This document shows positions 6,770-59,096 of a stretch of DNA of 64,000 nt, piece after piece. The position numbers and the translations under genes were made by a program. Position 1 is the stretch's first letter. Each line of letters begins with the position of its first letter. The DNA comes from Schistocephalus solidus (Eukaryota; Platyhelminthes; Cestoda; Diphyllobothriidea; Diphyllobothriidae): positions 1 through 64,000 of the forward strand of contig WEDG01000858.1 of the NCBI GenBank assembly GCA_017591395.1, given 5' to 3'. Below the pieces are notes generated by a model. That model was not told where the DNA came from and did no database searches. It saw nothing but the letters and a program-made list of their open reading frames with translations.

Positions 6770-8985
6770 GAATTTATATATATTCCAAATAAATATCCAC
6801 ATTTATATATTGGCTTCACAAAGCAAACATGCTCTGTATGGGTAGCCAAGGGCACGAACAGGCAACCAATTACAAGGCCGAATTCGGCAAAGTTTTACTT
6901 GTAGAGAGAAGAGGCAAAATAAATTATGGGTAGATTGATACAGTCTGTTTCAGGCTTATTCTGCCTTCATTCAGCCAAACATAACCCTGACTACAAGTTG
7001 GGACTGAAAACACCAAAATTTCATTCGATTACGGCGCAGACAGTCCACAAAATGGTCCTAGCAGATGGGTTATAAGCACATACTCGAAAGGAAGTTCATC
7101 AGTGCCTCGCCACATGTCATTACCTGTCGCAGCAGATCGAGTATTTATTTATACATGAATAGGCGCACACTGATCTATTGGCTTCCCGAAGCAAACAAGC
7201 TCCATATTGGTGGCCAAGGGCATGAACAGACGACCAATTGTAAGGCCGAAGTCGGAAAAGGTATAATTGCAGAGAGGAGAGAAGACAGAAAAGATGGGTG
7301 GATGGATACCGTCTGTTTCGGGCTAATTATGCCATCATTTAGCCAATCATAACCCTGACTAACAGATGAGACCGGAAACACAAACATGCGCTCGAGTAAG
7401 GCGTAGACAGTTCACACGCTGGGTCTAGCAGTTGGGTAATAAGTAATTCATCGAAGTGAAGTTCATCAGTGTCTCGCTACCTGTCATTCTATTTCGCTGC
7501 AGATTGTGTATTTATTTAAACAGGAATAGGCGCACACCGATCTACTGGCTTCCAGAAGCAATTTATCGAACTCTCATTGATCAGTGCCTTGCCAACTGTC
7601 ATTATCTGTCACTGCACATTGGGTATTTATTCAAATATGGATAAGCGCACACCGATCTATTTGCTTCTCGATGCCATCAAGCTCCATACCGGTGGCAAAG
7701 GCCAGCAAGTACCAGGCTTAATAGGGCCAAGTTATAATTGCAGAGAGGAGAGAAGACAGAAAATATGGGTGGATAAATACCGTCTGTTTCGGACTAATTC
7801 TGCCTTCATTCAGCTAAACATAACGCAGACTAAAAGCTTAGACTGGAAACACAAACATCCGCTGGAGTAAGGTGCAGACAGTTCACACGATGGATCTAGC
7901 TGTTGGGTCATAAGCAATTCATCGAAGTGAAGTTCATCAGTGCCTCGCCACAAGTCATTCCCTGTCACAGCAAATCGGGTATTTATTCAAACAGGAATAA
8001 ACACACACCAAGCTATTGTCTTCCCGAAGAAAAAAGCTTCATATTAGTGGCCAAGAGCACGAACAGACTACCAATAAAAAGGCCGAAGTCGGCCAAGTTA
8101 TACTTGCAGGGAGGCGAGACGACAGAAAATATAGGTAAATTGATACAGTCTCTTGCTGGGTTATTCAGCCTTCATTCAGCCAATCATACCCCTGAAAACC
8201 AGCTGCCACTAGAAACACAATCATGCGCTCGAAAACGGCGCAGTCAGTCCACACACCGTTTCTAGCAGATGAGTTATAACCAATTCATCGAACTTAAGTG
8301 CATCGGATCCTAGCCACCTATCTTGCTCTGTCCAGGCAGATCGGGTAATTATTCAAAAAGTATTAGGTGTACACCAATCTATTGGTTTCCCGAAGAAACC
8401 AAACTTTGTATGGGTGGAAAGATCACCAACAGGCAACCAAATACCAGGCTGGAGATGGCCAAATTATAATTTAAGAGAGGAGAGACGACAGAAAATATGT
8501 ATAGAATGATACAGTCTGTTTCGGGCTTATTTCTCTTTCATTCAGTTAATCATAACCCTGACTACCTAGTGGGACTCTAAACACAAAAATTGCGCCGAGT
8601 ACGGTGCAGACATCCACACAATGGCCCTAGCAGATGGGCTTTAAGCACATACTCGAAAGGAAGTTCATCAGTGCCCCGCCACATGTCTTACCCTGTCGCA
8701 GCAGATCGGGTTCTTATTCAAACAGGAAGAAACACACACGGATCTATTGGCTTCCCGAAGCAAACAAGCTCCATATTGGTGGCCAAGGGCATGAACAGGC
8801 AGCCAATTACCATGCCAAAGTTGGCCAAAGTATAATTGCAGAGGTGACAGGAGACAGAAAATATGGGTGGATGGATGGAGTCTGTTTCGGGGTTATTCAG
8901 CTTTCATTCAGCCAATCATATACCTGACAACCAGTTGCCACTGGAAACACAATCATGCACTCGAGAACGGTGCTGTCAGTGTGTT
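6770..8985 (+). repeat. Tandem array, ~366-bp units, direct part
   Basis: Units can be phased on the recurring TCAGTG in 'gttcatcagtgcc': anchors at 7099, 7466, 7581, 7937, 8303 and 8668. Spacings are therefore 367, 115 (a truncated unit), 356, 366 and 365 bp. A leading partial unit starts near 6770. Each unit contains recognisable blocks: 'cagatcgggtatttattc', 'ctattggcttcccgaag', 'ggccaagggcatgaacagg', 'aattgcagagaggagag' and 'ttcattcagccaatcata'. Units differ by many substitutions and small indels, so the array is old. Short open frames inside are not conserved as proteins between units. I cannot tell whether this is a satellite or a set of terminal repeats of a mobile element; the neighbouring PLE makes the latter worth testing. 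Confidence 0.85.
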
Positions 8986-9876
8986 TCTGTTTCCACTCCC
9001 ACCTGGTAGTCAGGTTTATGATTGGCTGAATAAAGGCAGAATAAGCCCGAAGCAAACTGTGTCAATCTACCCATATTTTCTGTCGTCTCTCGTCTCTGTA
9101 ATTATAACTTTGCCGACTTTGGCCTGGTATTTGGTTGCTTTTTCGTGATCTTGCCACCCATACAGAGCTTTTGTGCTTCGGGAAAACAATATATTGGTGT
9201 GCGCCTAATCCTTTTTGATTTAAAACCTGATCTGAAACGAAAGGTAATGACAGGTTGCGAGGTGGTGATGAACTTCAGTCCCATGAAATGCTTATGACAT
9301 AACTCCTAGACCCAGTGTGTGAATAGTCTGCCCCGTACTCGAGCGCATGTTTGTGTTTCCGGTCCCAGCTGGTAGTCAGGTTTATGATTGGCTGAATGAA
9401 GGCAGAATAAGCCAGAAACCGATTGCATCAATCTTCCCATAATTTCTGTCACCTCTCCTCTCAGCAATTTTAACCTGGCTGACTTCGGCTTTTTATTTGG
9501 TTGCCTGTTCTTGATCTTGCCCACCATATGGAGCTTGTGTGCTTCGGTAAACCAATAGATTGTTGTTCGCTTAATCCCGTTTGATTAAAAACCTGATCTG
9601 AAGCGACAGAGAATTTCAAGTTGCGAGACATTGATGAACTTCAGTTTGATAAACTACTTATATATCATCTTCTAGACCCAGTATTTGGACTGTCTGCGCC
9701 GTACTCGAGTGCCTGTGTTTTTTTGCAGTCCCAACTGGTAGTCAGGTTAATATTTGGTTGAATGTAGGCAGTATAATCCTGAAACATAGTGTATCAATCT
9801 ACCCATATTTTTTGTCACCTCTCCTTTCTGCAATTATAACTTTGCCAACTTCGGCCTGGTAATTGAGTGCCTGTTC
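8986..9876 (-). repeat. Same ~366-bp repeat, inverted part of the array
   Basis: From about 8986 the unit runs as its reverse complement: 'ggtagtcaggtttatgattgg', 'tctacccatattttctgtc', 'ccaatatattggtgtg'-like and 'tgatgaacttcag' blocks. Anchors TGATGA at 9266 and 9632 give a spacing of 366 bp, identical to the direct part. There are roughly three inverted units; the last is cut at about 9876, where PLE coding sequence begins. The junction near 8985 puts the blocks 'ccagttgccactggaaacac' and 'gtgtttctgtttccac' close together, a large imperfect palindrome. Confidence 0.83.
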
Positions 9877-10610
9877 CTTAAGGGACCGAATGGAAACACT
9901 GCACAATATTATTACTTCGACGATACTTGGAATAACCTTTACGCTCGAAAAAGAAATTGACGACCAACTACCTTTTCTTGACGTCCTCGTACAGCGAAAG
10001 ACTGACGGGACCTTTAAATCATCAGTTTACCACAAAGAGGCTAATGCAGATGTTGTTCTACATTATGAGAGCAAATACCCTATCGCCCACAAACGAAGCG
10101 TGGTCAACACACTCATCAATCGGGCAAAAGCCCACTGTTCCACCAAGGAACTTTACCAAATTGAACTCACTTATCTATTCAAACTGTTTTCCAGCAACGG
10201 TTACCCTAGAGATTTTGTACATAGATGCATGAAACATCAAGAATTAAAAGAAAAAGATAAAGATAATGAACTATGATTGTTCCGATCATGCACCCACAAT
10301 AAAAAACTGGAAAACACTTCCATACATTAAGAACGTGTCTGAACTCGTTGAAAGACACTTGCGGAAGCGCCAAATTTACGTGGCGCACAAACCAACGACT
10401 ACAATTCGAAACCAGCTTTTACACCCTAAGGATAGGGTTGGCTATTTAGATAAAAAAGAAGCCGTTTACAAAATCCCATGTAACAGCTGTAATGTTGTGT
10501 ATTGCGGTCAAACAGGAAAATCAGTCTCTACACGCCTACACGCCTACACGAACATCATTTGGCATGCCTTATTAATATCACAGCCTATATATTTTTCCTT
10601 TTCGGCGATT
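9877..10610 (+). pseudogene. Penelope-like element: RT end plus GIY-YIG (fragment P1)
   Basis: 9890-10276 reads like the C-terminal part of a Penelope-type reverse transcriptase: the DDQLPFLDVLV block near 9960-9990, a YHKEAN/LHYESKYP block and an AHKRSVVNTLINRA block. It continues, after a frame change at about 10260-10276, into KTLPYIKNVSELV and then a GIY-YIG endonuclease start with a Cys pair (IPCNSCNVVYCGQTGKS, about 10474-10525). Known: PLEs join RT to GIY-YIG and act in the nucleus by target-primed insertion. The catalytic part of the RT is missing on the left, where the inverted 366-bp repeats begin. An 8-bp tandem duplication at 10533-10548 shifts the frame just after STRLH. Dead fragment. 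Confidence 0.85.
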
Positions 10611-10614
10611 TAAT

Positions 10615-18719: not shown

Positions 18720-19410
18720 GTTACTGAGTCCGTTTTGAATTAACCTAACGATGCTTTTGTTCCGGGTTGGTACCAATTTTTCACCTGAGAACCTGAATGA
18801 TTGTGAGGACAACCGTAAACGGATATCACACAGTCGAATTAGCGTGGTTATAAAGACGGCTAATTCGGGTCAGCAAAAGTTGGCATCGTCGTTCCAGTCG
18901 TGAGAAGACTTGGGCGGACTGGCGCTGGTATATGCATTCATTCCACACATAAAGTCGATTAAACGGAATGGATTCGACCGCATGGCTGCTGCTAAGACGC
19001 ACCACATCAGTTTTGAGCAGTACCCAGCTTGAAATTTCGTAAGCTAATGATGACCCTCTTACTGTTTTTCGATTCTACACCCCATTCGATATCAACGGGA
19101 GCCCTAAGGAGATGAGCACTGCCTTTAGAACAAAAGGCCCTCGTAATGCTGTCATGAGGCAGGCCACTGATCCTGGAAATCTGGGACGTCAAAGCGCATT
19201 CCCAGGTGGTATTGACACATTAAGAATATCGTTTGTGAATTAAAACCACTGCTCAAAGGCTGGAATTTGGAATCTCGACTACAGTACGCTCTTTCAAATT
19301 CAACTGTCCGTTCAGTACATAGAGAACGCTCCATGTACTATAATGTCGATTTCTAAACGTCCAGACCTCCAACAAGGCGTGACGTATCATGAATGCATTC
19401 GTGCATATTC
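18720..19410. other. Unassigned segment
   Basis: No recognisable coding content. It lies between the phosphatase-like exon and the start of LINE copy C. Homology to copy C begins abruptly near 19411 ([10 protein letters not shown]). Confidence 0.4.
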
Positions 19411-21413
19411 GCTGTGGAAAGTCATGCAGAAATTCGGCTGTCCTGAGCGGTTCACGCATATGGTGCAACAGCTTCATGACGGGATGATGGCGCGTGTCAC
19501 TGACAACGGGACGGTACCCGAAGCATTCGCAGTGACCAACGGCGTGAAGCAGGGCTGCGTATTGACTACCAACCTGTTCAGTCACATGTTCTCGGCTATG
19601 CTGATAGACGCATACCGTGATGAGCAGCCTGGGATCCACATCGCCTACAGAACTGAAGGGCAGCATCTCAACAGGCGGCGTATGCAGGCTTCAACGCTCG
19701 TGTCTACTGGTACAGTCCATTATTTCTCTTCGTGGACGACTGCGCCCTTAACACCGTGACGAAGGAGGACATGCAAAGGTGTATGGACCCTCTTCGCCGC
19801 AGGCTGCGCCAATTTTGAATTAACAATCAGTACAGCCAAAATGGTTGTCATGCACCAGCCGCCACCCAGCGCGGAATACAATGCTCCTCGAATCAATGTC
19901 AACGGTGCTCAACTCCAAAACGTGGAAACCTTCGCTTATCTAGGAAGCACGCTGTCGCGCAACACGCGAATCGATAACGAGGTTGCCCAACGGATCTCCA
20001 AAGCTAGTCAGGCCTTCGGCCGGCTGCAGGCCTCCGTGTGGAATCGCCACGGTATTCACCTGAACACCAAACTGAAGATGTACAAGGCTGTCATCTTGAC
20101 GACACTCCTTTACGGAGCGAAGACATGGACCGTCTACTCGGACCAAGCCAGGAAGCTGAATCACTTTCATCTCAGCTGCCTCCGCAGAATACTGAAGCTG
20201 AGATGGCAAGACAGAATCCCGGACACGGAATTCCTGGAGCAGACCCGAATCCTCAGCATCCACGACAAGCTGAGGCAAGTGCAACTGCGATGGAGCGGCC
20301 ACCTGGTAAGAATGGACTACGAGCAACTATCCAAATGTCTTTCTATGGAGATGTCGCTACGGGTTCTCGCCGGCAGGGAGGTCAAAAACGACGTTACAAG
20401 GACACTTTGAAGCAATCGCTGAAGCAACTGCAAATCAACCCGGTGACCTGGGAGGATCTCGCCCAGGATAGACCGGCATGTATAAGATCCGTGAAGACTG
20501 GTGCAGCAATCTATGAGGACAACCGGATCGCTGCCGCCAAGGCCAAAAGAGCGGCACGAAAGTCCACAGCGCCCCGGACCAACATCGTCGATGCCCAGGC
20601 CCTGCCAACATGCCCGCGCTGTCAACGCATCTCCCGCGCGAGAAACGGCCTGGTTGGACATCTTCGGACGCAATGCACCAACTATCTGACAATTCCAACT
20701 TCTAAGTCAAATTCTGCCGACCCTCCTTCTGACTCCCCACCCTCACTCTTGGCATCAATTAAATTACTCCCACCATCATAGAGACCACATCCCTCTAATC
20801 ATCGCCTGTTAACCCCACCACCGGAACCACCACCGCCTTCGCCTTCACTACCACCACCACCACCATCAGCGATGGGGAATCTCTCCTAAGCTGTCCTCGA
20901 TGCAACCGCACATCCACCTCACGCATCGGCCTGGTCGGTCACTTGCGAATCCATGGTACAGAGACTGGTAATACAGTGCCCGGAGCACCAACACACAGCA
21001 GAGATCTTCGCCTCAACTGCCCTCACTGTTCTCGCGCATTCACTCAACGCATGGGCCTATTCGGTCACATGTGCATCCATGACAGCGGAATCCACCACAA
21101 TGCCGACAATACCGATACACCATGCACACCCACCGCTCCTGCCGTTCTAAGCGCCACTGCCATCCCCCACTACCATGAATGACATCCCCCCAGCCTCTAC
21201 CGATTTCTCCTGTCCACACTGCACCCGCAACTTCAACTCACGCATTGGCCTTGTCGGTCACCTGCAAATCCATCGCACGGAGGCTGGGGAATTAGCGCCT
21301 GGGGCTCCAACATACAGTCGACGTGCCCGCCTCCACTGCCCACACTGCTCCCGCACATTCACACACCGCGTGGGCCTATTAGGACACATGCGCCTCCACG
21401 ACAATCTGTGGTA
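19411..21413 (+). pseudogene. LINE copy C: RT 3' half and zinc-finger tail
   Basis: 5'-truncated within RT. It starts at [10 protein letters not shown], has motif B (NGVKQGCVL, about 19538-19564) and motif C as FVDD (about 19730-19745) instead of FADD. Frameshifts lie near 19722, 19790 and 20330. The thumb/C-terminal region follows ([31 protein letters not shown]-like). Next come [18 protein letters not shown] and WEDLAQDRPA (about 20376-20480), then a CPRCQR finger (about 20611), CPRCNR (about 20896), CPHCSRAF (about 21020), CPHCTRNF (about 21213) and CPHCSRTF (about 21341), each followed by a GHLRxxC or GHxxxH half. Known: APE-type LINEs copy themselves by target-primed reverse transcription. 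This copy cannot: it lacks the endonuclease and motif A. Confidence 0.9.
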
Positions 21414-25400: not shown

Positions 25401-28400
25401 ATTGACCAGCACGGCATGCAAACGAGCGTCAATGTAGCATAGCACTTTAAACTCATACCTATCTCCTGTCTCGGATGATGCCTTCAAGTGGGAATTTGCA
25501 ATTCTAGTCCAATAGAGTACCCCAGCAACGATGAATTGCACTTTTGTCGATTGCTAGTTGGACCTATTCCATTGGTCATTTCACCTCCATGTGTAAAGCC
25601 ACCCATAACTACAGTACACGTTTGGCAGTTAAAATGGAAATCATGAACTCATTATCTCTGTTTGTTTGAAACAAACACTATACGAGGTTCGAGACTCAAA
25701 ACCATCTGCATCTAACATTTCGTAAGTAGCAAACGTTACCATAGTATTAATAAGGAATTGATACCCGCAGGGATTCTGAATGGAAGGTAGACTAAAATAT
25801 ATCCAACCCCTAAAATCAACCGCAGACCTCACTTTATCTCGCAAAACCGGCAATTCCGAAAATCGCAACTTCGTCATTTAATACTTCTATTGATGATCGT
25901 GACAACGGTACCAGCGGAACCAATACTATATCAACGAGTAAATTTTAAATTCTACATTTCCTCTTTAACCATTATTTTTCGAGTTACTTGGTTTTGCCCT
26001 ATATTAATGCGCCGTAGTGAGTTAATATTTAAGATATCAGTAGAAATATATTCTAGTATTTTTGCTGTCTGAAATTATCTCGTTGTCGTTCTCTGTGGTT
26101 TTCTTACGTACATGGGCCTCTAATAAAAGGTATGGTAAGCACACTTTCAAAAAATATCATTTACCGCATAAATAACCAAGCATCGGCTGAACTAATACAT
26201 CCAAAGCAAAGTCATGCGATGATTATACGCTCTGAACCGACATTTTTGGGGTCGATTGCATTATGCACACGTCTACCCAAAAAAAACTGAGTGAAATATA
26301 TGTTTGGATTTCAAGGGGATGGCTACATATCAGTCTGTCTCTTTTATAATTTCCTATGCGAAAGTACGTAGAGCATGTGCTTGCACTTAGACATTTCCCC
26401 TTCATGCATTCCTATCCTCTTCTCTACGGTTCTTTTAATTTAATTTTCTCCCATCTGGTTCTCACATTCAGCATCTAAAAAGAATAAGGATCTCTTCGTT
26501 GTCTCTAATGGAATAGGTAACTGGATTCTACTGGGTTAAGCTCCACTGTTTGTCACGTGATTGGAATGATTCCATGTTTTCGCAGATTATACAGTTTCTC
26601 CTGCTGTTAGCGGTGTCAGTGGTTTAGGTAACGAAAGTTTAGACGAGACCGTTTTCTCATTTTTTATTTTGCCAGCGCTCGTCTTCCACCATGCTTTACT
26701 CCCCTTCAATAAACTTACTCTAAAGCCAGCCAACTGTTGAAAGCAACAGGGCACCTTTTTGTGTTTGGTCCAATGTAAATTCAGGGTAACGGTAATAGCT
26801 TATTTCAATGACCCAAACAACCGCATATGAAGGTTAATATCAGATGAATTTTATCATAAACTTATCTGTTTCTGTATTATTATGGAGTTCCGAGTAGGTA
26901 TAACAAGTTTAAGAGAACTACTATCTTAAATCTAGATAGGTTCTTTGCTAGCTTTACATTTTTTGACTAACAGAGTAATTTACAAGAGTCAAAATCAGTC
27001 AGCTTCAATAATTTCGAAAATCTTGGTTAGTGAATGTTACATCGATCTGTTGAGCATTTGTGTGTGCGAATTTATTTTGCTGTCCAGCTTCCATGCCCAT
27101 TTAAACCACTGGTATACGGACATCATTCTAACTAATTGGGTTTTTTGTTCTTTCGAGTTTAGCACTCTGAAGCTAGTTCTCTAAGTGAAATTTAACATTA
27201 TACGTTTTTTTTAAACTGAGAAAAGTGGCCCTCACTTTTTGACAACTTTTCCTAAAATCCTCTCAAGAAATGTGTTTCTTACACGTATAAATTGGGTTTT
27301 CTGTAGAAATTGAATATTTTTGTTAATTTATTTTATTTGTATATTCGATGAAGGATAAGATTAAATGACAATAGTTCTCCAAAAGTTGGCATTACGTCCT
27401 TCTGGGAGGCCATATTAGCGAGCTAAAAGTGCAAACGGATGTCAATATTTAAAAAATCCTGCTAACTGTGAACAACATAAATCCTTGAAGCCCACTTCAG
27501 TTTTTTGTCTGTTTCAAATAGGCTTTACTTACAATATCCGGACTTGCGGTGCGCGGATCTCCTTTCTATAAAATGCAATACCAATTTTGAAAAAAATTAA
27601 ATACATTTAACTTAAGTTTCTTTCGGCCATTAAACTGCCTTTGATGCCTTGTTTATTGTTTAAGATTAAAAAGCTGGTCAACTAAACTTGGTTAATTCTT
27701 TGCGTACAGCCAAGAGACGTAAACTAACCTTTTAGACATTTCTCACATGATGGATCTAAAAATTAATTGAACATCAATAGATATGAGGCATATGGCTGTC
27801 GTCAGTTTATTATGAAAGTTTATTGCTAAAGTTAAAATGTATACCCATTTTCCCTGTGCCCCAAAGCACTGCACCATGCTCAGATCAAGTAAATTCACCT
27901 GAGCATTTTTTCGCATCCCAGTGAACTAGCCGTGAATTTAAAGGACGCTTTTTGACAACCGGAGTATGAATAGATCGGAAAGTCCTTCTTGTTTAAAAAA
28001 ACTAAATATCTTCAATGTTAGTAGAATAATATGCATAATGGGGTGTTGAAACAAGACCAGGCACCCAGTTCTACGTAGTTATCGTTTTATTTGGATTTAT
28101 TCAAACAAGAGATTGTTTCGAAAATCCATTTATTATTGAACATATGGGATTAGTTATCAAATCGCTCTCAGAAGGGCGAAATGTTTCGGTGATCGTTGCT
28201 GATCGTGAGTTTCGTAGACAGGCTTGAAATGGATTAATAACGCTCTCCACAAGCAATGCACGTTGGGCCTATAAACAGCAATAAAACGCGATATTTAGAC
28301 TAAGGCACGTTCGGATGGTTAAACCGCTTTTGCATGTTGAATTGCATCTGAACAAGCATTGCTTAGACAAGCGATCGGTCCCGAACTGTCCTTCGTTAAA

Positions 28401-28456: not shown

Positions 28457-31400
28457 TTAGGGACTTTGTTTTATCCGCAAATAGCGAGCTAAAAGTTGGT
28501 ATCGATTTACTTCACTTACCTCGTGGCTTCTTTGATGAACTTCTCTTGCCTAAAAAATGAAAGGATTACAGATTGATGATAAAGGTTGATTTGGAAGGAA
28601 GTAAATGAAAGAGCATCTACAGCGAGATAGGGTCGAAACTTAAAATATATACCTTTTGAAGGCTTTCGGTTCGACTTTTGCTCCGCGTTGCGTGAATGAG
28701 ATCGAGCTAAAAGTAGAAGAATTGCATGAACTATGCTCATATAAACCACTAGGTTCCATGTCTCATGCTTTTAATATCTTAGTCAAAAAAGCAAAACCTC
28801 CCAGTGCAAACATAAGTCTATATATATATATGAAAAGAAAAATGCTCTTCGGGAAATGGAGTTTTACTCGTAAATTTTCAAGTTGGTGACACCAACCCGT
28901 CGTCAGACGAAATGAACAGAGGAGAAAGTGAAGTGGCGCGAAGAGCATTTTTCTTTTCATTTTACTATCTCGGGATGCAAACAACCTCTGTTATTCAATA
29001 TATATATATATATTTACATATTTTAGGAAATTTGTAGAGGATGGCGACGAAGTTTCCATTAAAAGGATAGCGTATTTTTGTCAAAGTTAAGAGGTACATA
29101 TTAAGGCATTATAGCAATTATATTTTGAATACGAAAGTAAGAGGAGTCTCCGAAATTAGTACAGTAAACAACAGATCCGACCATTTATGTGGGTTCAATA
29201 TGTCCCAAAAGTTTGGGCTATCGAACCAGTAAAATAAATATCGTTTGTTTTTTATTCTTTCGTTTTCATAACGATGTAAATATTGCAACATTTGATTTCC
29301 CTTTTAACAACTACTGCCTTACCAAATGTGAAAAGAGGTTTACACAGTTTTCCTTCTAGATGCTGGATTACCATTGAAAATAAAAATAAATTTAGTACAA
29401 TACTAAGATAATAATTATAGAATAGAGTTGATATACCTCGTGTACGTTTACGCCAGTAGCCCTCTACAGTCTCGCTGTCATCCGAGTCCGAGTCCGATGA
29501 GGAAGATGAAGAACTGCTTGAGGAGGAGGATGATGACGAGGAAGAGGATGAGGATGAGGACGAGGATGAGGATGTGGAGTCCGAGTCCTCATCGCAGTCT
29601 GTATTAATGAAAGAGAGATCGGGGATCTTACCTCGATTCAAAGACAACAGACAGATGGCTATTTAAATTAAGTACTAACCCACCATTGCGTCTCTTGCTG
29701 CGGTCAGCTCCAACAGTACCATTAGAGGCTTTTTATGGAAACAAACAAAACATCAGAATATTAGCGGGAAATTCATTATTTCGGAATAATCTATATAGTC
29801 TTCAACGTCTATCAAAATAACAGGGTTTCAGGTACAAATGAAACTCACGATTGCCCTTCTTCTTCCAGAGGCGAGAAATAACTATCTTTTCTTCTCCGCA
29901 TTCTGGACCACATCCGCCCTTGCCTGAAATATTTGAGCAAAGTGAATCTTTATGCGAAATTGCGAACGGTCCATACAAAGGAGCTCGCCGCCTCAAAGAG
30001 TCAGAATTACTTAGGAAAACGACCTACCTTGCCCAGTCAGTTTCTCTAAATACTGAACCCGAGGCAATTCACATATTTAACTACGCAAACTAAATGCTTC
30101 TGCAGACATTCAACTGACCTTGAGGCTCATGCTTCCAGAAGCGTTCGACCATAATTTTCTCCTCACCATCGTCCGACGATTCGGAGCACTCTACTTCGCC
30201 TTCCGGCATCTCATCAGACAAATCATCTAAAGTAGTAAAATCTCATTGGACGATCGTCTACCTTCATATAGTGTACGTTTACACATATTATGCAAAATAA
30301 GCCTTACCGTATTCGGGTTTACCGTGGCGTCGCGAAGGTTCATAGGGTGGATACTGCTTCTTTGCTGTAAGTATATTAAAAGTTCACTTTTAAGTAGATA
30401 AACGTGAAACGGTATGCCCATTCATCTTCTGTGTTATAAAGGAAAATAAACGCACCTTTACTGGAGTCCCTTTTGCTCTTCGGAGGACATCGGCACCTGT
30501 CGTCTAGATAAAAACAAAAATTAGTTCTGGATTGGTTTATACTCTCGGGATGATCCGAAGCCATGGAATTAGTGGACTATAAAAACATTACAGTTCCTTT
30601 TTCCTTAGTTCTAATCGTCTGCCTCCACAAAGTGTAGGTAATTTTGAACAAATTTTGTTCCCGTAAGATAATAAGTTACTAAAAAGTCCTTTGGTTGAGT
30701 AACGAATCATCAAAAAACGTATCTTATTAAGCAGTAAACTGCAAGGACTCAAAAACAAGGTACTATGCGCAGCCTGGGGACTTTCAACTAATATACTGAA
30801 TACATCGAGTGAAAACTGGGCAAACAGTTTTCGAAGATGCTTGTAGTAGTCAAGAATCGAATTTTCTGCTTACCACGTCTTGTTGGACACTTTTGTGGCA
30901 TGATATCTGAACCTTGCGTGTGAAACGATTGACTGTAAAAAGGCTGTCGTATGCAAAAAATGTAGACCTTTAAAGTGTTTCAACTAACCAATCACCTTGA
31001 AACCTGTTGTAACAAGTGCTCCTATTGTTCTACAAGTCCGCAACAGTCAGCAGAACTCTGAATGACGAGGTGTTCTGTGAGGGCTCACACCCAATTAGTG
31101 GCAATACTTTACTACGACAAAAGTGAGCGCGATGCCAGGAAGCATTCGGCTTAAAACGGCTTAATTGACTTTAGGAGCACTCATTGTAAGCATAGATGGG
31201 TCACAAGAGGCCGTGAGAGGTGGCCTAGGAAACCAACGCGTCATAACTAGAGCGTTTCACGTAAATATTCGTGCAAGCAGAATTCTTAAAGCGCTATATG
31301 GTAACCGTGGGGATCGGGGTTTTGTGCACTTTGCTTTGTACTTCAGGAGAGTTCTAACGGTAACAGAAGAAGGTGCAGAAATCTGACACCATTTCAACCC

Positions 31401-32957
31401 TTTTTTTAATATTACGGTGCTTACGGTTAAACGATTACAAAATTCAACATTACAAACTGAATTTTAAAATCTCAATTTCCGTTTGTGATTAGTTCATGCT
31501 TTAGAATTTGGGGGGAGAAACTTCTGAAATATTAATGAGAACGCTCAAGAAGTGGACAGCTAGAAAATCCGCAGTATAAAACAAATGCTGCATTTTGGAT
31601 GTGGGTCTATTGAATGCTGAAAGGCAAGTTGAGACTGTGACATTAAAAATTTGCTTATTGCAGAGTTCGTTAGATGCTGTAAACTACTAAGGGAACTACA
31701 TTAAAAAAACTCGTAGTATAACCGTATAAATATATCGCACCAATGCACTCACAGTCTGCCACATGCAAACGATTTCATGTGACGAACTTCCCCTTTGATC
31801 TGTTAACTCGCAATGGCAAATCTCACGCAGGACATAATTTGACGTGTGTAATTAGTTTGAACGCTTTTTACTGAAAGATTCATTTAAAATTTCAACTTAA
31901 ACATAACATTTTTTAAAAAGTACTTACCGCTTGAAACAAGCTGTGTTTTAGGTAATTACCAAATTTGAAGATTGTTTCTTAAAAGTAAATGGTTTCAATA
32001 GATCAAGTATCCAGTGCTGTGTATAATGCACCCATCAGTAACTCAGATTCTCTTAGTCATTTTCCAAATAGATATATAAACTTTTACATTCTTTGGTAAA
32101 ACTGCCAGAAAATTTTGCAATGTACATGTTTTGCCCCAAAGGGACTGTCGTGCCTATAGGAACAACTAAACCTCGGTTTCAAGATAGAAGTCATTACACA
32201 GATAGCGCAAACTCCATTACCTTCACCTTAAATTGCAGGAAACTTTTAAAAAAACAGATGGTTACTGTGAAAGCTGACTGTGCATAATTGCACTTTCTCG
32301 AAAGAAGAAATAACCGGTCACACGTCAGGGCAGTATTTGTTCGATGGGAAAATTACTGCTGTATGTTGCAGAAACTGATACCAACCGTGAACAAAAAAAG
32401 ACCTAACCAGTTAAAACATAGGAGATTTTGTTAAAGCAATTACCAGTAATTTGTACGCGAAAGTGGGAGAAACTCACCTCATCGGCAGGGACCCTGTTGA
32501 AAAAGATAACGAGAAAAGCCTGGAGTTTGAAACTTGCTACTTTTTTCATTTGCCTTTTGTGTCTTCTGCATATCGTTATCAAGAATATACCCCCGAAATA
32601 CTATCTTTACTAAAAATTACAAATATTTTCTACCGGGATCCTAATAATCTGCCATGGGTGGATGTCAGTAATCAAATGTATTTCTTGCTTCATCTACGCT
32701 GGTGATCTTATGCAGCTGTAGAACGATCAATATAGCATTTCTTTCAGTTTTATAGTCGACGGAACTCAAATTTTTATGTATTTTTGGTCTGATGAAACCT
32801 TCTTTCTGGCCTAAAATGTTCCAATTTGGGGGGGGGGGGGTAGAAATTGGTAGGCCATTACTCCTGGAGATAAAACGCTTCACTCCATGGAATCAAATAA
32901 GTTCATGTTGTACAGCATTCAGTGGGGATGCTCGAACGGTCCCATCGCTTACCACAT
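28457..32957 (-). CDS. Micro-exon-type gene (predicted, many symmetric exons)
   Basis: Exons with GT/AG borders on -: 32478-32493, 31928-31940 and 30989-31003 (tentative), 30874-30906, 30456-30503, 30308-30364, 30119-30226, 30028-30045, 29849-29923, 29684-29728, 29632-29658, 29437-29598, 29323-29355, 28653-28706, 28520-28549 and a possible last exon 28457-28488 ending TAA. A start ATG at 32955-32957 before a good donor (gtaagc) is the weakest part. From 31003 down to 28520 every exon is a multiple of three and in phase 1-1, so any can be skipped without a frameshift. The joined frame stays open for about 256 codons. Contents: Cys/Arg/Lys-rich exons, two exons with EEKI...RxWK, a poly-Ser/Asp exon, and a basic tail (NRKPSK, SSSKKPR) like a nuclear signal. 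No signal peptide or known domain. Known: flatworm micro-exon genes have this layout. Function unknown. Confidence 0.6.
28520..28549 (-). CDS. Micro-exon, 30 bp (basic: KRSSSKKPR)
   Basis: Strong sites on both sides (acceptor 'cattttttag', donor 'gtaagtgaa'). Phase 1-1, 10 codons, Ser/Lys/Arg-rich. The intron after it would be only 31 bp if the last exon begins at 28488. Confidence 0.6.
28653..28706 (-). CDS. Micro-exon, 54 bp (ARSHSRNAEQ...)
   Basis: Acceptor 'cttctacttttag', donor 'gtatat'. 18 codons in phase 1-1, very polar, rich in Arg, Ser, Lys and Asn. Confidence 0.55.
28832..28958. repeat. Inverted-repeat element with 20-bp perfect arms
   Basis: Arms 28832-28851 (gaaaagaaaaatgctcttcg) and 28939-28958 are exact reverse complements, with an 87-bp centre. 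TA microsatellites flank it (about 28819-28831 and 28998-29014). It lies in the intron between the 33-bp and 54-bp exons of the micro-exon gene. It could be a small MITE. Confidence 0.6.
29323..29355 (-). CDS. Micro-exon, 33 bp (EGKLCKPLFTF)
   Basis: Acceptor 'catctag', donor 'gtaaggc'. 11 codons, phase 1-1. An acceptor further upstream would bring in a stop, so this border is the only open choice. Confidence 0.5.
29437..29598 (-). CDS. Micro-exon, 162 bp, poly-Ser/Asp
   Basis: Acceptor 'ctttcattaatacag', donor 'gtatat'. 54 codons in phase 1-1: DCDEDSDST, a run of about 25 Ser, DSDSDDSE and then VEGYWRKRTR. The Ser run is coded by mixed tcN/agY codons, so it is not a simple trinucleotide expansion only. 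Such acidic Ser tracts are typical casein kinase 2 substrates (general knowledge). The terminal W-R/K motif recurs in two other exons. Confidence 0.65.
29632..29658 (-). CDS. Micro-exon, 27 bp (AICLLSLNR)
   Basis: Donor 'gtaagatc' is strong. The acceptor 'aatttaaatag' would leave an upstream intron of only 25 bp (29659-29683) and a downstream intron of 33 bp. Not splicing this 25-bp piece would break the frame into the Ser exon. Tentative but phase-consistent. Confidence 0.45.
29684..29728 (-). CDS. Micro-exon, 45 bp (PSNGTVGADRSKRRN)
   Basis: Acceptor 'tgtttccataaaaag', donor 'gtgggt'. 15 codons in phase 1-1, polar and basic at the end. Confidence 0.5.
29849..29923 (-). CDS. Micro-exon, 75 bp with EEKIVISRLWKKK
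   Basis: Acceptor 'ctcaaatatttcag', donor 'gtgagt'. 25 codons in phase 1-1: GKGGCGPECG then EEKIVISRLWKKKGN. The second half repeats the end of the 108-bp exon. Confidence 0.65.
30028..30045 (-). CDS. Micro-exon, 18 bp (EKLTGQ)
   Basis: Acceptor 'ttcagtatttag', donor 'gtaggtc'. 6 codons in phase 1-1, in the size class typical of flatworm micro-exons. Confidence 0.5.
30119..30226 (-). CDS. Micro-exon, 108 bp with EEKIMVERFWK
   Basis: Acceptor 'ttttactactttag', donor 'gtcagt'. 36 codons in phase 1-1: acidic DDLSDEMPEGEVE, CSESSDDG, then EEKIMVERFWKHEPQ. Likely duplicated with the 75-bp exon. Confidence 0.65.
30308..30364 (-). CDS. Micro-exon, 57 bp (AKKQYPPYEPSRRHG...)
   Basis: Acceptor 'aatatacttacag', donor 'gtaaggc'. 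19 codons in phase 1-1, rich in Pro, Tyr, Lys and Arg. Confidence 0.6.
30456..30503 (-). CDS. Micro-exon, 48 bp (DDRCRCPPKSKRDSSK)
   Basis: Acceptor 'tttgtttttatctag', donor 'gtgcgt'. 16 codons in phase 1-1, with a CxC pair and basic residues. Confidence 0.6.
30874..30906 (-). CDS. Micro-exon, 33 bp (DIMPQKCPTRR)
   Basis: Acceptor 'cgcaaggttcag', donor 'gtaagcag'. 11 codons in phase 1-1. Confidence 0.5.
32827..32840 (+). repeat. Homopolymer G run
   Basis: About twelve consecutive G near 32827-32840, an isolated mononucleotide tract in otherwise AT-rich DNA. Possible G-quadruplex or sequencing-length uncertainty. Confidence 0.6.
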
Positions 32958-33151: not shown

Positions 33152-33446
33152 TTTCGAATTCTTACTGGAGTCCATCGTCAGAGATAAAAGCGGCATCAAA
33201 ACAAGCAACAGTTATAGAGGACAGGAGCAAACAAAAAAACATTAACTAAAATCCGGAAATATCTGCGCATATTTCCGTATATCGATTGACTGATTTCTCA
33301 TCGGAGGCCCAGGCTTCAACCAATTCGAGGATGTTTTCGATTCTGGTGTGGGTGGTTTTTTTCATGGCTTTGAAGTTAAACTCGTGTTCCTGCGGGTTTT
33401 TTCGCCGCTTTTATCTCTGACGACAAAACCCAGTAAAAGTTTGAAA
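33152..33446. repeat. Inverted-repeat (MITE-like) element
   Basis: 33176-33194 (cgtcagagataaaagcggc) and 33404-33422 are perfect inverted repeats of 19 bp. Pairing continues outward imperfectly ('tttcgaattcttactgg' against 'cccagtaaaagtttgaaa'). About 210 bp lie between. No coding content. Looks like a small non-autonomous element. Confidence 0.6.
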
Positions 33447-33757: not shown

Positions 33758-36700
33758 AGCTACATAGACGAACGGACTCTCGATGGTTATGAAGACGCAT
33801 ATAGGCTTCCAATCTGCTGGCATAAAAACGTGACGCCAACGTCGCAGAGCGGAGATTAAGGGAATGTCCTCATCTAGTGATCCCTGCAGCGCAAATCAAG
33901 GCTTGTCTTTGTAAATACCTCAAGTACTGTGTCCAGATCACTGCTGTCGTTCTGTGCATTTTTTCTGTTAACAGTTCAACCGTCGCAAAAAACGAAGCTA
34001 ATATGGCGTTCCTATGGTGTTTGCAGTATGCCTACTTGCGCTTGAATTACTTTATCATATAAAAGACTTGCACGCATCTGCTGCCTTCAACTCCTACCCC
34101 GCTTTGTCTTTTCCATCACCAAAATGATCCCGGAGAGAGTCAAGCAGACCGCAGGCGGACTAGGAGGCAGTGGCTAATGAAGCCAAATAGACCGTCTACG
34201 TTGACGGAGATGCACACGTACGGTCTGGTCTGTATACGCTATCGCAAAGAAGTCGTTTATTTAAGTATATTTCAGAAATTAATTACCTGCCTAGTTCCGG
34301 ATGCCCCAAACTCCATGTCCTTAAGGACGTTAGAGTGTATGAACTCCCTCGCAGAATTCCTAATTTGCCACCCATTTTAAACTTTTTTTACATAGGGATG
34401 ACACCATGGAAGGGATTTACACAGTTGGGTCTTCGGAGAGTTGAGTGCAGCAGCAACAGCATACTGTGGACTGCGATGCAGTTTCTTTCTTAGAATTCTT
34501 TTGGTGCTACTATTTTCTCAGGAGGTACTTTTTCTTGGATATTCACTTTGGTTACTGATTTGATTATTTGCTTACTTAGTTTTTAATGTAGCTGGTGCTT
34601 ACTAGCTCACTAATGCTCCTCACTCCTAGTTAATGGGAGAGTGCTGAACTCCACTGCAGCTTGGTCTAATTGCTAATGGTAAACAAGACGGCGCAGATCA
34701 CGCTGAGATATTAATAAAGTTTAGTTTACCGGTTAACCTGTAGCGTTTTTAACTAGGGTCCGATTTTTTAAAGTGTTACTTTTCTACTCCGAAGAAAATG
34801 AGGGTTGAAAGAGTGAGAAAAAATAAGAAGCCCGGATCCCACGACTGGCTCTCTTGGAAGGCAAAAGAAGGACCTTTGCCCATCACCACAAGCCCCATGC
34901 AGTTGTACGAATATCAAAAACATGCTGAAAACTAAAATCGCTTATTTGCATATTGTCTTTAGAGTGGCAAGAGTTCTGTGCTCTTTATCTTAGCCGCAAT
35001 TCGCATGAATTGGCCTGCTTTAAGCCATAGGTGGTTCTCGAAGTGGTTTCCTGGGATTTTTTTACCTGCATGCCTGCTAGCTTTCACCGCTCTTATATAG
35101 GAGAATCTATGTTAGTGTTGTTACTGTTTTTACACAATTTTTTAGGAGCAGGTTTTGGATTTGTTACAATTTCTGTTAATCATCCTACTTTCTGACCCCT
35201 TTCAAGAAACCACTCTACTCGGGACATTTCTTGTAAAAGCCGATAAAGTTGTTCTCACCTTCGATGAAACTTATACGCCAAAAATGGCCGAAAAAAATTA
35301 TAACTTACAAACCTATGTTAACTACATTTTCTGCCTTCGTTTAAATAAAGTTGAAACGTTGCAGACCATGCAACATGGGCACTTTCCCGGGCTCAATTTC
35401 TAACTATCCAAGATAATTACCGACTACATTCATGTCATTTTAATGAGGGCAGCACAATGATTCATCTCACGTATGTCAAAATACTTTATTTTTCTTCGTC
35501 GCACTTTGTCCGTGAGTTCAACATACACTTGAAGTTTTTGCATTGTTTGCTTCAACCGAAAAACGCCGCGGTGTGTTAATATGCTTAGGTGGTTATGGTG
35601 CGGCTTCTGGATCTCCTAACTGGCCTCTTCAGGTTAGTACTGCCGACGTTGTCTGGGCCTGAATGACCCAGGAAGCTTTGCGAAATTCTTTCATATTCCT
35701 TTGAATACTCTAACCATCCAAGATGTTCATAAACATGTAGATAACTTTCACTATAAATGAGACTTAGCCTGTAGGCAATCGCGTTCGAGGCTCCCTATTC
35801 ACGCGTTTTTGTGATTTCACCATACTTTCACTTCTTAGCTTAACGATTGTGGCCAGGTATGTGGCTAACATGGTTCATAACCTTTGCTATAAACGCATCA
35901 TAACGACATCTTTTCTTCGTAGTTACGCTGTTTTAAAGTATTGAGTAATTCCAGGTTTAGGCATTTTGTACTTTTAAAAGCAGAAGTGGCGTTACTTATG
36001 AAGAGGCTGTGCGATGCAATGATTCTCAAGGAAACTTACACGTGATGATATAGAATCTCATTTGCCTACTTGTGCAATGCGCTTAACTGTGAACATGGAT
36101 TTTTGCGATACGGGTTATCATAATCTTTGATCCGCACCCTATGATATCTCGGTTAAGTTAGGCTGTATAACTGGCCTCAATCCTGGCATGTACTGCAGTT
36201 AATTACTCCTTGATGCCCTCGTGAAAGTGGTTAACTCTCATGGCGAGATCGGTTCTATTCTCAAATTTATCTTTTAAAGCACATCAGGCAAAAATTAAGT
36301 GTTTGATTTTAAAGAATTCTCAAATCGTGTATATGACAGGCACATGATTTTGCTCCAGTGGTGGTCACATGCTTTGCTTTCTTATTTCAGTTGATGCGTC
36401 GTTTCATTTTTCAAGACACTGGCTAAATGACCGAATCTTTCACTGTTCGACCAAAACACCAATAAACTTACCCCTTGGTGTTAGCATACTGTACTTACTC
36501 TTTTGATTGCCTACCAGCGGCTACATTCACACATTCCACTTAGTCAGATTTCACATTTCCCGATAAGAATAGTCATGCTGGTTACCCGCACACACCATCA
36601 AAAAAACGGTACTCATCAATTCTTTGAATTCTCAACTCAGGCGCATTGCTGGGTAGTGGGTGCTGTCACAAGGAACCACATCTCTCGAATGTCACTAAGG

Positions 36701-39444: not shown

Positions 39445-39656
39445 TGCATTCGTTGATAAACGCTCTCCGATCGCTAACGGAATACACTTGTCTCGTGCTG
39501 CCTTCAGGCTCACTGTCGATACCCGCGAGCGGCCGCACAGCGTCTCGTGGTAAAATAGGCAGATGAATGTTGCCGGCAAATACGAGAGAGACTTGAATGG
39601 CCGTTTCTGGCTTAGTAGCCGTCGTCAACCAGTCATAACCAACCCCAGGTGGTGCA
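39445..39656 (-). mobile_element. tRNA-derived SINE body, inverted
   Basis: Read on -: 'gggtggtgcaccacctgggg', 'gactggttgacgacggct', 'ggccattcaagtctctctcg', then 'gccggcaacattcatctgcc' and a tail with 'gttagcgatcggagagcg'. It matches the SINE body of 43860-43960 and 44900-45060. It lies back to back with the + copy that follows. Confidence 0.75.
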
Positions 39657-39666
39657 CCACCCGTGG

Positions 39667-39832
39667 ATCGATCGTTCAGTGGTAAGAGCATATGGCTTCT
39701 GATCAATGGGTCGCGGATTCGATCCTCGGATTGTGCACCAGCTAGGGCTTACTATAACTGAATGACGACGGCTAGTAAGCCAAACATGCCCATTCCAGTC
39801 TCCCTCGTCTTTCCGGCAATATTCAAAAGCCA
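39667..39832 (+). mobile_element. tRNA-derived SINE with head
   Basis: Head: 'gatcgttcagtggtaagagc' (box A-like) and 'ggattcgatcctcgg' (box B-like: GATTCGATCC). Then the body 'gacgacggctagtaagcca', 'cccattccagtctccctcg' and 'ccggcaatattca'. Known: tRNA-type SINEs are transcribed by Pol III from such internal boxes and are moved by LINE enzymes. 3' part missing. Confidence 0.75.
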
Positions 39833-55300: not shown

Positions 55301-56300
55301 ATGCTGGTTATCACGTCTTCCGCAGCCGGTCGCGGCTCGCAGATCACAAAATACGCGGTCGTAACACTCAAACAAACAACAATACTCCCGTCCCCATCCC
55401 CTCGCCATACCCTCCAGGCTGCTCGGGTGAGTCCACTCACACTAGCAGCCTGGCATGTTCGTTCCCTTTCAGACAATCCTAGGAGCAACTGGCCGGAACG
55501 GAGGACGGCGCTAGTCACTCGGGAACTGGCGCGCTACAAGGTGGACATTACTGCTTTCAGTGAGACCCGATTCTCTGAGCAGGGTCAGCTGGAGGAGATG
55601 GGTGCCGGCTACACCTTCTTCTGGATTGACCGGCCAAAGGCAGAGCGACGCGACGCTGATGTCGCCTTTGCCATCCGGAACGACATCGTGGGACGTCTGC
55701 CTTGTCTGCCGCAGGGTATCAATGATCGCCTGATAAGCCTCCGCCTGCCTCTTCGGGGAGACAAGTTCGCCACCATCATCAATGCCTACGCTCCCCCAAT
55801 GACAAGCTCTGATGCGGTGAAGGATAAATTCTACGAGGACCTGCACGCCCTGCTGGCGACTGTGCCAAAAGAGGACAAAATAATTGTCCTTGGTGACTTC
55901 AACGCCCGCGTTTGGACGGACCACGCTGTCTGGCAGGGAGTGATGGGTCCCCACGGTTTCGGTAGCTGTAACGATAACGGCCTCCTTCTTCTGCCAACGT
56001 GTGCGGAACACCGTCTCCTGCTGACCAACACCTTCTTCCGCCTTCCGACGCGGCATAAGGCCACGTGGATGCACCCTCGGTCGCGGCGTTGGCAGCTGCT
56101 GGACTATGTTCTCGTCCGGAGGCGAGATCGACAGAACGTGTTGGTAACCAAGGCGATCCGCGATTCCGATGGTTGGACAGATCACCGCCTCGTCATCTTC
56201 CAGATGAGGCTCCGACTGCAACCCCGTCGAAGGCCCCAAGGTAAGCGGCCGCCAGGTAAGTTAAATAATCTTTTGTTAAATTTGCCTGCTCATTGTTTGA
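55301..56300 (+). pseudogene. LINE copy E, APE endonuclease domain
   Basis: Starts at ATG 55301 in a 338-codon open frame. Order of motifs: LAAWHVRSL (about 55440-55470), [11 protein letters not shown] with the catalytic Glu (about 55540-55570), the AYAPP block (about 55785), LGDFNARV (about 55890-55915), [24 protein letters not shown] and GWTDHRLV with the catalytic His (about 56170-56195). The first motif is W-H-V-R where this family normally has W-N-V-R, so the catalytic Asn appears lost. The domain ends at a frameshift near 56300, where HCLISVTK replaces the expected reading into NQITEKLEN in the next frame. Confidence 0.85.
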
Positions 56301-58262
56301 TTTCAGTAACCAAATAACCGAGAAACTGGAGAACATGCATGCTCCAGATAATAACGGCACCGTGCAAACACGATTGTGCTAACTGCAAAATGTTATCCAG
56401 TCCACCGCCCTCGAAGTCCTCGGACGCGCATGCCGTCAAAACCAGGACTGGTTTGATGACAATGACGCAAACATCAGCAACTTACTCGCGGAGAAGAATG
56501 GACTACACAAAGCCTACATGGACCTTCGGACTGACGCCACCAAAGCAGCCTTCTTCAGATGCCGGTGCCATGTACGGCAATGGCTGCTGGAGATGCAGGA
56601 TGCCTGGATGATCCGAAAGGCTGAGGAAATCCAGGGGTATGCAGACCACAATGAAATGAAAAACTTTTTCAAAGCCATCAAGGCCATCTACGACCCGCGT
56701 AAGAAGGGGACCGCACCGCTGCTCAGCTCTGACGGCACAACACTGCTGACAGAGAAATCGCAAATTCTGAAGCGCTGGGCCGAGCACTTCAGAAGATTCC
56801 TTAATTGATCATCAGCCATCTCCGATGTTGCAATTGACCGGCCACCTCAAGTGGACATGAACAATGACCTGGATCTGCCGCCTTACCTACCAGAATCCAT
56901 CCGGGCCGTGCGGCAGATTTCCAGCCGTAAAGCACCGGGATCCGACGCAATCCCACCGGAAGTCTACAAGCACGGTGGGCCCCGGCTGATGGCAGAACTT
57001 ACAACACTCTTCCAGGAGATGTGGCACCAAGGACGAGTTCCTCAGAATTTCAAAGACGCGACCATCGTTCACCTCTACAAAGGGAAGGGGAACCGACAAT
57101 TCTGTGATATTCACAGAGGCATATCGTTGCTCAACATCGCCGGGAAGATCTTCGCCTGTATCCTTCTCAATCATCTGAACGGTCACCTAGAGCAGGGCCT
57201 GCTCCCGGAAAACCAATGTGGCATCCGCCGACACCGCGGGACAACCGATATGATCTTTGCCACCCGCCAGCTACACGAGAAGTGCCAGGAAATGCGAAAT
57301 AATCTATACACTACCTTCGTGGTTCTGACGAAAGCCTTTGACACGGTGAATCGCGACGGACTGTGGAAAGTCATGCAGAAATTCGGCTGTCCTGATCGGT
57401 TCACGCACATGGTGCGTCAGCTTCATGACGGGATGACGGTGTGCGTCACTGACAACGGGATGGTATCCGAAGCATTCGCAGTGACCAACGGAGTGAATCA
57501 GGGCAGCGTATTGGCTCCCACCCTGTTCAGCCTCATGTTCTTGGCTATGCTGATGGACGCCTACCGTGATGAACAGCCTGGGATCCGCATCGCCTATAGA
57601 ACTGATGAACCCCTTCTCAACAGTCGGCGTATGCAGGCTTCAACGCGCGTGTCTACGACTAAAGTCCATGACTTGCTCTTCGCGGACGATGGCGCCCTTA
57701 ACACTGTGATGGAGGAGGACATGCAAAGGAGTATTGACCTCTTCGCTGCAGGCTGCGCCGATTTCGGATTAACAATAAGTATAGGCAAAACGGTTGTCAT
57801 GCACCAGCCGCCACCCAGCGCGGAATACAATGCTCCTCGAATCAATGTCAACGGTACTCAACTCGAAAATTTGGAAACCTTTGCTTATCTAGGAAACACG
57901 CTGTCGCGCAACACGAGAATCGATGACGAGGTTGCCCAACGGATCTCCAAAGCTAGTCAGGCCTTCGGCCGGCTGCAGGCCTCCGTGTGGAATCGCCACG
58001 GTATTCACCTGAACACCAAACTGAAGATGTACAAGGCTGTCATCTTGACGATACTCCTTTACGGAGCGGAGACATGGACCGTCAACTCGAACCAAGCCAG
58101 CAAGCTGAATCACTTCCATCTCAGCTGCCTCCACAGAATACTGAAGCTGAGATGGCAAGACAGGATCCTGGACAAGGAAGTCCTGGAGCGGACCGGAATC
58201 CTCAGCATCCGCGCCATGCTGAAGCATGTGCAACTGCGATGGAGCGCCCACCAGGTAAGAAT
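56301..58262 (+). pseudogene. LINE copy E, reverse transcriptase
   Basis: From the frame beginning NQITEKLEN (56310) through a stop near 56376 and another at 56806, then a long open frame to 58359. RT landmarks: [17 protein letters not shown] (about 56932), [15 protein letters not shown] (about 57050), [29 protein letters not shown], motif [12 protein letters not shown] (about 57316-57350), motif [17 protein letters not shown] (about 57484), motif [11 protein letters not shown] (about 57673-57702), then [40 protein letters not shown] and [19 protein letters not shown]. In motif A the usual FVDL is FVVL, so the first catalytic Asp is gone. FADD is intact. Confidence 0.88.
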
Positions 58263-59048: not shown

Positions 59049-59096
59049 ACACCCTATGCTTCTACCATTCTTACCTCCAATGCCACCACCACTACC

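What the first reader, a model, noticed from the sequence alone, without database searches (positions are those of the whole stretch)
28457..32957. A micro-exon-type gene with a chain of symmetric phase 1-1 exons
At least twelve predicted exons between 28520 and 31003 on - are multiples of three (15 to 162 bp) and all in phase 1, each with GT/AG borders. The joined frame stays open to a stop. Chance would not keep length, phase and openness together this often. This matches the known layout of flatworm micro-exon genes. I do not recognise the protein (acidic and poly-Ser centre, basic tail, no signal peptide seen), so it may be an undescribed member or a different class.
Basis: partly seen in the sequence, partly recalled or inferred. 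Interest (0 to 1): 0.85.

Follow-up and report, generated by a model that had tools for sequence, protein, structure and literature searches.

The report
Tapeworm gene of in-phase skippable exons
This is a real tapeworm gene built almost entirely of small exons that could each be left out without breaking the protein frame, and it belongs to an unnamed family seen so far in tapeworms; it resembles the flatworm micro-exon genes in layout, but its protein does not appear to be secreted.

Summary
On the minus strand, 30901-28520, lies a chain of phase 1-1 exons with GT/AG borders, all multiples of three. A blind splice-chain scan ranks this strand, place and phase first of 570 tests, and 0 of 300 shuffles reach it. 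Homology settles it: the genome holds three diverged paralogs with the same plan where readable. A two-paralog profile found a Spirometra protein that runs ungapped, 80% identical, across five spliced junctions of paralog C4815a, and a Mesocestoides corti protein. The conserved core is under purifying selection (dN 0.14, dS 1.18, 39 codons). Most likely it encodes an intracellular, probably nuclear, largely disordered phospho-serine protein with tandem acidic-[KI.V.R.W]-basic modules, each on one removable exon. Function and skipping are inferred, not shown. The terminal exon and one 18-bp exon are unsettled.

The parts
30967..30992 (-). Promoter-like pair: ATTGG (inverted CCAAT) at 30992 and TTTAAAGG (TATA-like) at 30974, 18 bp apart; paralogs C4815a and C4815b have such a pair 18 and 17 bp apart before the ATG, C4926 only the TATA-like run
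   Evidence: noticed after the fact, suggestive
30874..30901 (-). Exon A, initial coding exon, MPQKCPTRR, ends in phase 1
   Evidence: the paralogs have a short ATG exon ending in phase 1 (MPRY, MPRKGL, MNSPRLQKY); the Spirometra homolog starts MPRYQ
30456..30503 (-). Exon B, 48 bp, phase 1-1, DDRCRCPPKSKRDSSK
30308..30364 (-). Exon C, 57 bp, phase 1-1, AKKQYPPYEPSRRHGKPEY; weaker in-frame donor at 30323 gives 42 bp
30119..30226 (-). Exon D, 108 bp, phase 1-1, first module ...SDDGEEKIMVERFWKHEPQ; internal in-frame donor GGTGAGG gives a 60-bp form without the module (such a donor also exists in paralog C4815a)
30028..30045 (-). Possible 18-bp exon EKLTGQ, phase 1-1, unsupported by any relative
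29849..29923 (-). Exon E, 75 bp, phase 1-1, second module GKGGCGPECGEEKIVISRLWKKKGN
   Evidence: read as 75 bp in the three paralogs too, with a rival acceptor giving 54 bp at C4815b
29684..29728 (-). Exon F, 45 bp, phase 1-1, PSNGTVGADRSKRRN; weak acceptor
   Evidence: same position as F of C4815a and C4926
29437..29598 (-). Exon G, 162 bp, phase 1-1, acidic poly-Ser tract then ETVEGYWRKRTR (degenerate third module)
28653..28706 (-). Exon H, 54 bp, phase 1-1, basic ARSHSRNAEQKSNRKPSK
   Evidence: paired with H of C4815a by position only
28520..28549 (-). Exon I, 30 bp, phase 1-1, GKRSSSKKPR; best-scoring splice pair of the gene
   Evidence: paired with I of C4815a by position only
28234..28268 (-). 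Best-scoring candidate terminal exon, GPTCIACGERY*; rivals start at 28440 and 28488, or at 29362 directly after exon G
   Evidence: not settled
28086..28134 (-). Candidate polyadenylation signals AATAAA at 28134, 28101 and 28091
28811..29021 (.). Interspersed repeat inside the long G-H intron, not part of the coding sequence

Best explanation
Shown: this is a protein-coding gene of a tapeworm, one of at least four copies in the genome. The exons placed in the four copies give splice junctions in phase 1. It belongs to a family with two tandem modules (acidic residues, K-I-x-[VI]-x-R-x-W, basic residues), one module per removable exon, followed in three of the four copies by an acidic poly-serine exon. 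Inferred: the protein has no visible signal peptide, carries many basic clusters and CK2-type serine sites, and so most likely stays inside the cell, probably in the nucleus, as a mostly disordered phospho-serine scaffold. Its short strand-like modules would bind a partner, and charge blocks would tune assembly. Because every internal exon, and two alternative donors, keep the frame, splicing can change the number of modules or the serine tract without destroying the protein.
For: Gene and family: own-genome protein searches found C4815:33777-34008 (best E 0.003), C4926 about 87 kb (E 0.59 and 0.085) and C4815 about 14.3 kb (E 1.9 and 0.87). The last two E-values are weak alone, but at each locus the other module was then found beside the hit, in order, on its own exon. 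C4815a has 8 internal exons of 33, 30, 72, 75, 63, 147, 30 and 15 bp, all phase 1-1, and an open 162-aa frame. D is 72 bp in three copies (108 in the window) and E is read as 75 bp in four of four. Profile search: 3 proteins at E<=10 of 2696 candidates: Spirometra sp. Aus1 1.3e-36, Mesocestoides corti 3e-16, an unnamed 83-aa product 4.6e-3. The Spirometra annotation aligns ungapped over 93 aa, 80% identical, across the A/B, B/C, C/D, D/E and E/F junctions of C4815a. Selection, on ungapped conserved blocks that I chose: dN 0.14, dS 1.18 over 39 codons between loci; D versus E inside the window gene differ 5/1/9 at codon positions 1/2/3 over 13 codons. Mechanism: highest 15-residue Kyte-Doolittle mean near the start is -1.79 (window) and -1.33 (C4815a); pI 8.9 and 9.1; 6 and 7 CK2-type sites; charge turns from acidic before W to basic after W in D and G. 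AlphaFold on the Spirometra protein puts strands at 36-46 and 59-69, on the two modules.
Against: No transcript data were available. Localisation is inferred from composition; no signal-peptide or localisation program was run. The structure model is weak (mean pLDDT 58.7, pTM 0.22, two-sequence alignment) and also draws helices after the modules. In module E the residues before W have net charge 0, and C4815a has a further W (94) with the opposite charge order. Pfam gives no match at its cut-off. At C4926 and C4815b exons B, C, H and I were not located, and C4815b shows no F or serine exon, so these two are partial readings. Exon skipping has not been observed.
Confidence: 0.6

Rival explanations
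1. A true flatworm micro-exon gene (MEG): a secreted or surface protein diversified by skipping micro-exons, with a signal-peptide exon that lies upstream and was missed.
For: Phase 1-1 exons throughout; 5 of 10 exons under 70 bp and divisible by three. Two hydrophobic ATG frames lie upstream: 33242 (MFFCLLLSSITVACFDAAFISDDGLQ) and 32549 (MKKVASFKLQAFLVIFFNRVPADE...); the second has, besides its best donor, a weaker donor at 32444 in phase 1, the phase that exon B needs.
Against: The best donors of the two frames are in phase 2 (33242) and phase 0 (32549; 11.9 against 5.7 for the phase-1 donor). Exon A has its own ATG behind a TATA/CCAAT-like pair; the paralogs have a short ATG exon there too, and the annotated Spirometra protein starts there. 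Longest micro-exon run 2, rule needs 4. The core is under purifying selection.
Confidence: 0.15
2. An ordinary intracellular protein gene whose symmetric exons are simply a relic of exon duplication; splicing is constitutive and exon symmetry has no role.
For: Modules D and E (and weakly G) resemble one another, and duplicated exons keep the frame only if symmetric. The annotated homolog with exons A-F has the full chain.
Against: The small exons without a module (B, C, F, H, I) are symmetric too. Two donors that would make in-frame variants exist in the window gene. This rival is not excluded by anything seen here.
Confidence: 0.3
3. Chance chain of splice-like sites with no gene.
For: Several sites are weak; on the paralog loci a blind scan does not exceed background.
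Against: 0 of 300 shuffles in the window; paralogs, homologs and dN/dS.
Confidence: 0.01

Closest known systems
Hypothetical protein AAHC03_05231, Spirometra sp. Aus1 (P0121)
   Same: 80% identical over 93 aa to paralog C4815a, ungapped across five splice junctions; both EEKI-RxWK modules
   Different: 127 aa; the annotated C-terminus differs after exon F and has no poly-Ser region, perhaps a missed exon
Uncharacterized protein of Mesocestoides corti (P0122)
   Same: 73% identical over 45 aa to the window's D-E modules joined directly
   Different: 108 aa, different N-terminus with an extra EHYWKK stretch, no poly-Ser region in the model
Flatworm micro-exon genes (MEGs) of Schistosoma, Echinococcus, Hymenolepis
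   Same: Many short exons divisible by three whose removal keeps the frame (passages)
   Different: No signal peptide seen, longest micro-exon run 2, several exons of 72-162 bp, conserved core motif
Nopp140-type disordered nuclear proteins with acidic-serine and basic blocks (block layout recalled; PMC5855603 passages seen cover its disorder and CK2)
   Same: Disordered composition, serine-acidic tract beside basic clusters, CK2-type sites
   Different: No sequence homology found; the W-centred modules and the exon plan are not part of that family as I recall it

Membership tests
Micro-exon gene, rule of PMC7653826 | At least seven exons | tested here: met
   10 exons counting initial and terminal
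Micro-exon gene, rule of PMC7653826 | At least half of exons under 70 bp and divisible by three | tested here: met
   5 of 10 in window and in C4815a, end exons counted as not micro; 6 of 11 if the 18-bp exon is real; borderline
[quoted passage not shown]
   Longest run 2 in both; at most 3 if an end exon were short and divisible by three
Micro-exon gene, description in PMC5825161 | About 80% of coding sequence in symmetric exons of 6-36 bp | tested here: not met
   30 of 579 internal-exon bases in the window, 108 of 465 in C4815a
Micro-exon gene, description in PMC5825161 and PMC8293314 | Signal peptide, secreted or membrane-anchored product | tested here: not met
   No hydrophobic stretch in either joined protein; short ATG exon in four copies; Spirometra protein starts the same. 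By hydropathy only; SignalP not on hand, and an upstream exon is unlikely but not excluded
Micro-exon gene | Protein variants by exon skipping | not testable with these tools
   No RNA data; the exons permit it
Tapeworm EEKI-RxWK family (name coined here) | Two tandem modules, each on one phase 1-1 exon | tested here: met
   Four of four loci in this genome; both modules present in P0121 and P0122, whose exon borders were not seen
Tapeworm EEKI-RxWK family (name coined here) | Acidic poly-Ser exon after the modules | tested here: inconclusive
   Met in the window, C4815a and C4926; not found in the 9.9 kb around C4815b and absent from the P0121 and P0122 models, so it may not be defining

The most novel reading that the evidence does not exclude
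A conserved, non-secreted branch of symmetric-exon genes in tapeworms: the removable-exon layout known from secreted MEGs is used here to vary an intracellular phospho-serine scaffold, with module number and serine length set by splicing, including an internal donor that the codons of the GEE motif themselves create.
Probability: 0.3. Interest if true: 0.65.

Novelty: new variant of a known kind. Interest (0 to 1): 0.5.

Why it matters
[quoted passage not shown] Here a motif-defined family can be traced in two tapeworm orders, Diphyllobothriidea and Cyclophyllidea, with its exon plan kept in four copies of one genome. That gives a handle on how symmetric-exon genes arise, by exon duplication in one phase, and on whether skippable-exon architecture needs host exposure at all. 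It also suggests that gene models miss such genes: of the three species named (Spirometra erinaceieuropaei, Sparganum proliferum, Schistocephalus solidus) none is among the 3 hits, and the Spirometra sp. Aus1 model that is lacks a poly-Ser exon. Limits of that word-based search are another possible reason.

Tried and rejected
Upstream signal-peptide exons: 33242 rejected on phase; 32549 disfavoured, not excluded, since a weaker donor (32444) is in phase 1. An exon beginning near 31003: no support. The 18-bp exon 30045-30028: kept as possible only. Terminal exons at 29362 (ASRRKTV*), 28440 or 28488: not excluded. Single-sequence protein search: none at E<=1 among 1254 candidates; only the two-paralog profile found homologs. 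Pfam and PDB: no match at cut-off; six sub-threshold Pfam matches to the paralog (best AF-4, E 0.0058) and one to P0122 (DUF4575, E 0.11) were dropped. Rfam at gathering threshold and tRNA scan: none in the window. Blind splice scan on paralogs: no power. The figure 3e-11 for 22 exons all divisible by three is not used, since I read the exons with that phase in mind. Matches C5305, C3607, C1125 and C709 at E above 3 were dropped as chance. Paper searches for this family, or for MEGs in tapeworms, listed no description of it; the library is partial and sequence motifs were not searched in it. Passages of PMC4398949 and PMC4413821 added nothing.

Full report
Host. The window is G000:C724:1-64000, part of a 604-Mb assembly in 8019 contigs. 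A LINE reverse transcriptase in it (56809-58359) has its best matches, among the 120 listed, mostly in Spirometra and Sparganum (56-76% identity) and four in Schistocephalus solidus (60-81%), so the host is a tapeworm close to the Diphyllobothriidea. The species was not identified.

The exon chain. On the minus strand I placed exon A 30901-30874 (with the ATG), B 30503-30456, C 30364-30308, D 30226-30119, E 29923-29849, F 29728-29684, G 29598-29437, H 28706-28653 and I 28549-28520. Internal lengths are 48, 57, 108, 75, 45, 162, 54 and 30, all phase 1-1 with GT/AG. A generic splice matrix and a chain search that knows nothing of the finding put minus strand, this place and phase 1 first of 570 tests (23.3; best result clear of this neighbourhood 7.4), and 300 shuffles stay at or below 6.5 in that phase and 10.4 in any. 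The winning chain holds five exons: B, C and I as I place them, D with its inner donor, and G with a later donor. Phase 0 is second (17.9). E, F and H have weak sites and would not have been called blind.

Relatives in the same genome. A protein search of the whole assembly with the joined frame returned, besides the gene's own exons, C4815:33940-34008 (E 0.003) and 33777-33851 (E 0.22), side by side in the right order, and one chance match. The locus reads as a complete gene of ten exons: 13 coding bases, then 33, 30, 72, 75, 63, 147, 30 and 15, then 11 coding bases, with an open 162-aa frame. Searches with that protein gave C4926 about 87 kb (E 0.59) and C4815 about 14.3 kb (E 1.9); a module query gave both again and nothing else, and the C4926 protein added nothing below E 3. 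The E-values are weak, but each locus proved on reading to carry both modules in order. There I could read a short ATG exon, D (72) and E (75), and at C4926 also F (57) and a serine exon G (165). B, C, H and I were not found in these two; C4815b has no serine tract within the 9.9 kb fetched and may be partial. Four copies is a lower bound.

Relatives elsewhere. The single sequence found nothing, but a profile of window and C4815a found three proteins at E<=10 among 2696 candidates: Spirometra sp. Aus1 hypothetical protein AAHC03_05231 (E 1.3e-36), a Mesocestoides corti protein (E 3e-16) and an unnamed 83-aa product of a 394-bp contig (E 4.6e-3), which looks to me like exon D run on into its intron. 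The Spirometra model aligns without a gap for 93 residues, 80% identical, to my splicing of C4815a, across five junctions. This is an independent annotation of the same splice plan, though I do not know what evidence its annotators had. The M. corti protein joins module D to module E as in the window, without the 18-bp exon. Spirometra is in Diphyllobothriidea and Mesocestoides in Cyclophyllidea.

Selection. Over 39 codons of D and E in ungapped conserved blocks, window versus C4815a, differences fall 4/5/16 on codon positions 1/2/3, dN 0.14, dS 1.18. Within the window gene D and E themselves differ 5/1/9 over 13 codons, within C4815a 4/3/7. The blocks were chosen for conservation, so the figures speak for the core only; the ends of the proteins have diverged strongly. 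Four short introns of the two loci aligned somewhat better than shuffled ones (about 1.6 to 2.7 standard deviations).

Start and lack of a signal peptide. Before the ATG lie ATTGG and a TATA-like box 18 bp apart in the window and in C4815a, 17 bp apart at C4815b; C4926 has only the TATA-like run. This was noticed after the fact. Neither joined protein has a hydrophobic stretch near its start. Of two hydrophobic ATG frames further up, 33242 ends in phase 2; 32549 has its strong donor in phase 0 and a weaker one in phase 1, so an upstream start remains possible though disfavoured.

What the protein looks like. Modules: SDDGEEKI.VER[FY]W.[KH]..P-like on D and C.P.CGEEKIVISR.WKKK-like on E; on G an acidic serine run followed by Y-W and basic residues, a weak third copy. 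Across six sequences (four loci, Spirometra, Mesocestoides) 14 of 47 columns are invariant, among them V13, R15, W17 and I36, R40, W42. AlphaFold on the Spirometra protein with a two-row alignment gives low confidence (58.7, pTM 0.22) but puts strands on the two modules. No Pfam match at cut-off and no PDB match.

Mechanism. Most likely an intracellular, probably nuclear, disordered scaffold, phosphorylated on its serine tract, in which short strand-forming modules bind a partner. Every internal exon, and donors 30323 and 30167, preserve the frame. The 30167 donor is written by the Gly-Glu-Glu codons GGT GAG GA, is present in window and C4815a, and scores higher than the outer donor in both (5.7 against 4.4 and 4.8); using it would delete the module. 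Localisation, phosphorylation, binding and actual skipping are inferences.

MEG or not. Works-like: yes, in layout. Member: no, by the tests made (definitions from passages of PMC7653826, PMC5825161 and PMC8293314). It fails the run of four, the share of very short exons and, on hydropathy, secretion.

Verdict.

Noticed in passing
window 28811-29021: Short interspersed repeat (MITE-like, inverted arms) in the G-H intron; 55 of the 56 matches listed lie elsewhere in the genome and cover parts of it.
   Followed up: partly
window 55301-59438: LINE with endonuclease and reverse transcriptase (above Pfam cut-off) and C-terminal C2H2 zinc-finger-like frames (just below cut-off); a similar truncated copy, judged by eye from the frames, at 19244-21182.
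   Followed up: partly
window 6811-9876: Tandem arrays with a 366-368 bp unit in three blocks.
   Followed up: no
window 9863-10613: Reading frames that recall a Penelope-like element (YKIPC...VYCGQTG, GIY-YIG-like, from memory); Pfam gave no match at its cut-off.
   Followed up: no
window 39446-39825; L018:7250-8218: SINE-like repeat with a tRNA-type box (recalled), in copies of both orientations, shared with the contig of paralog C4815a.
   Followed up: no
window 33166-33420: Inverted copies of about 20 bases (GTCGTCAGAGATAAAAGCGGC) around a hydrophobic ATG frame MFFCLLLSS; seen by eye.
   Followed up: no
window 30167 and L018:4795: The GEE codons of the module form an in-phase splice donor in two copies; the other two copies use GGG GAA there and lack it.
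   Followed up: partly
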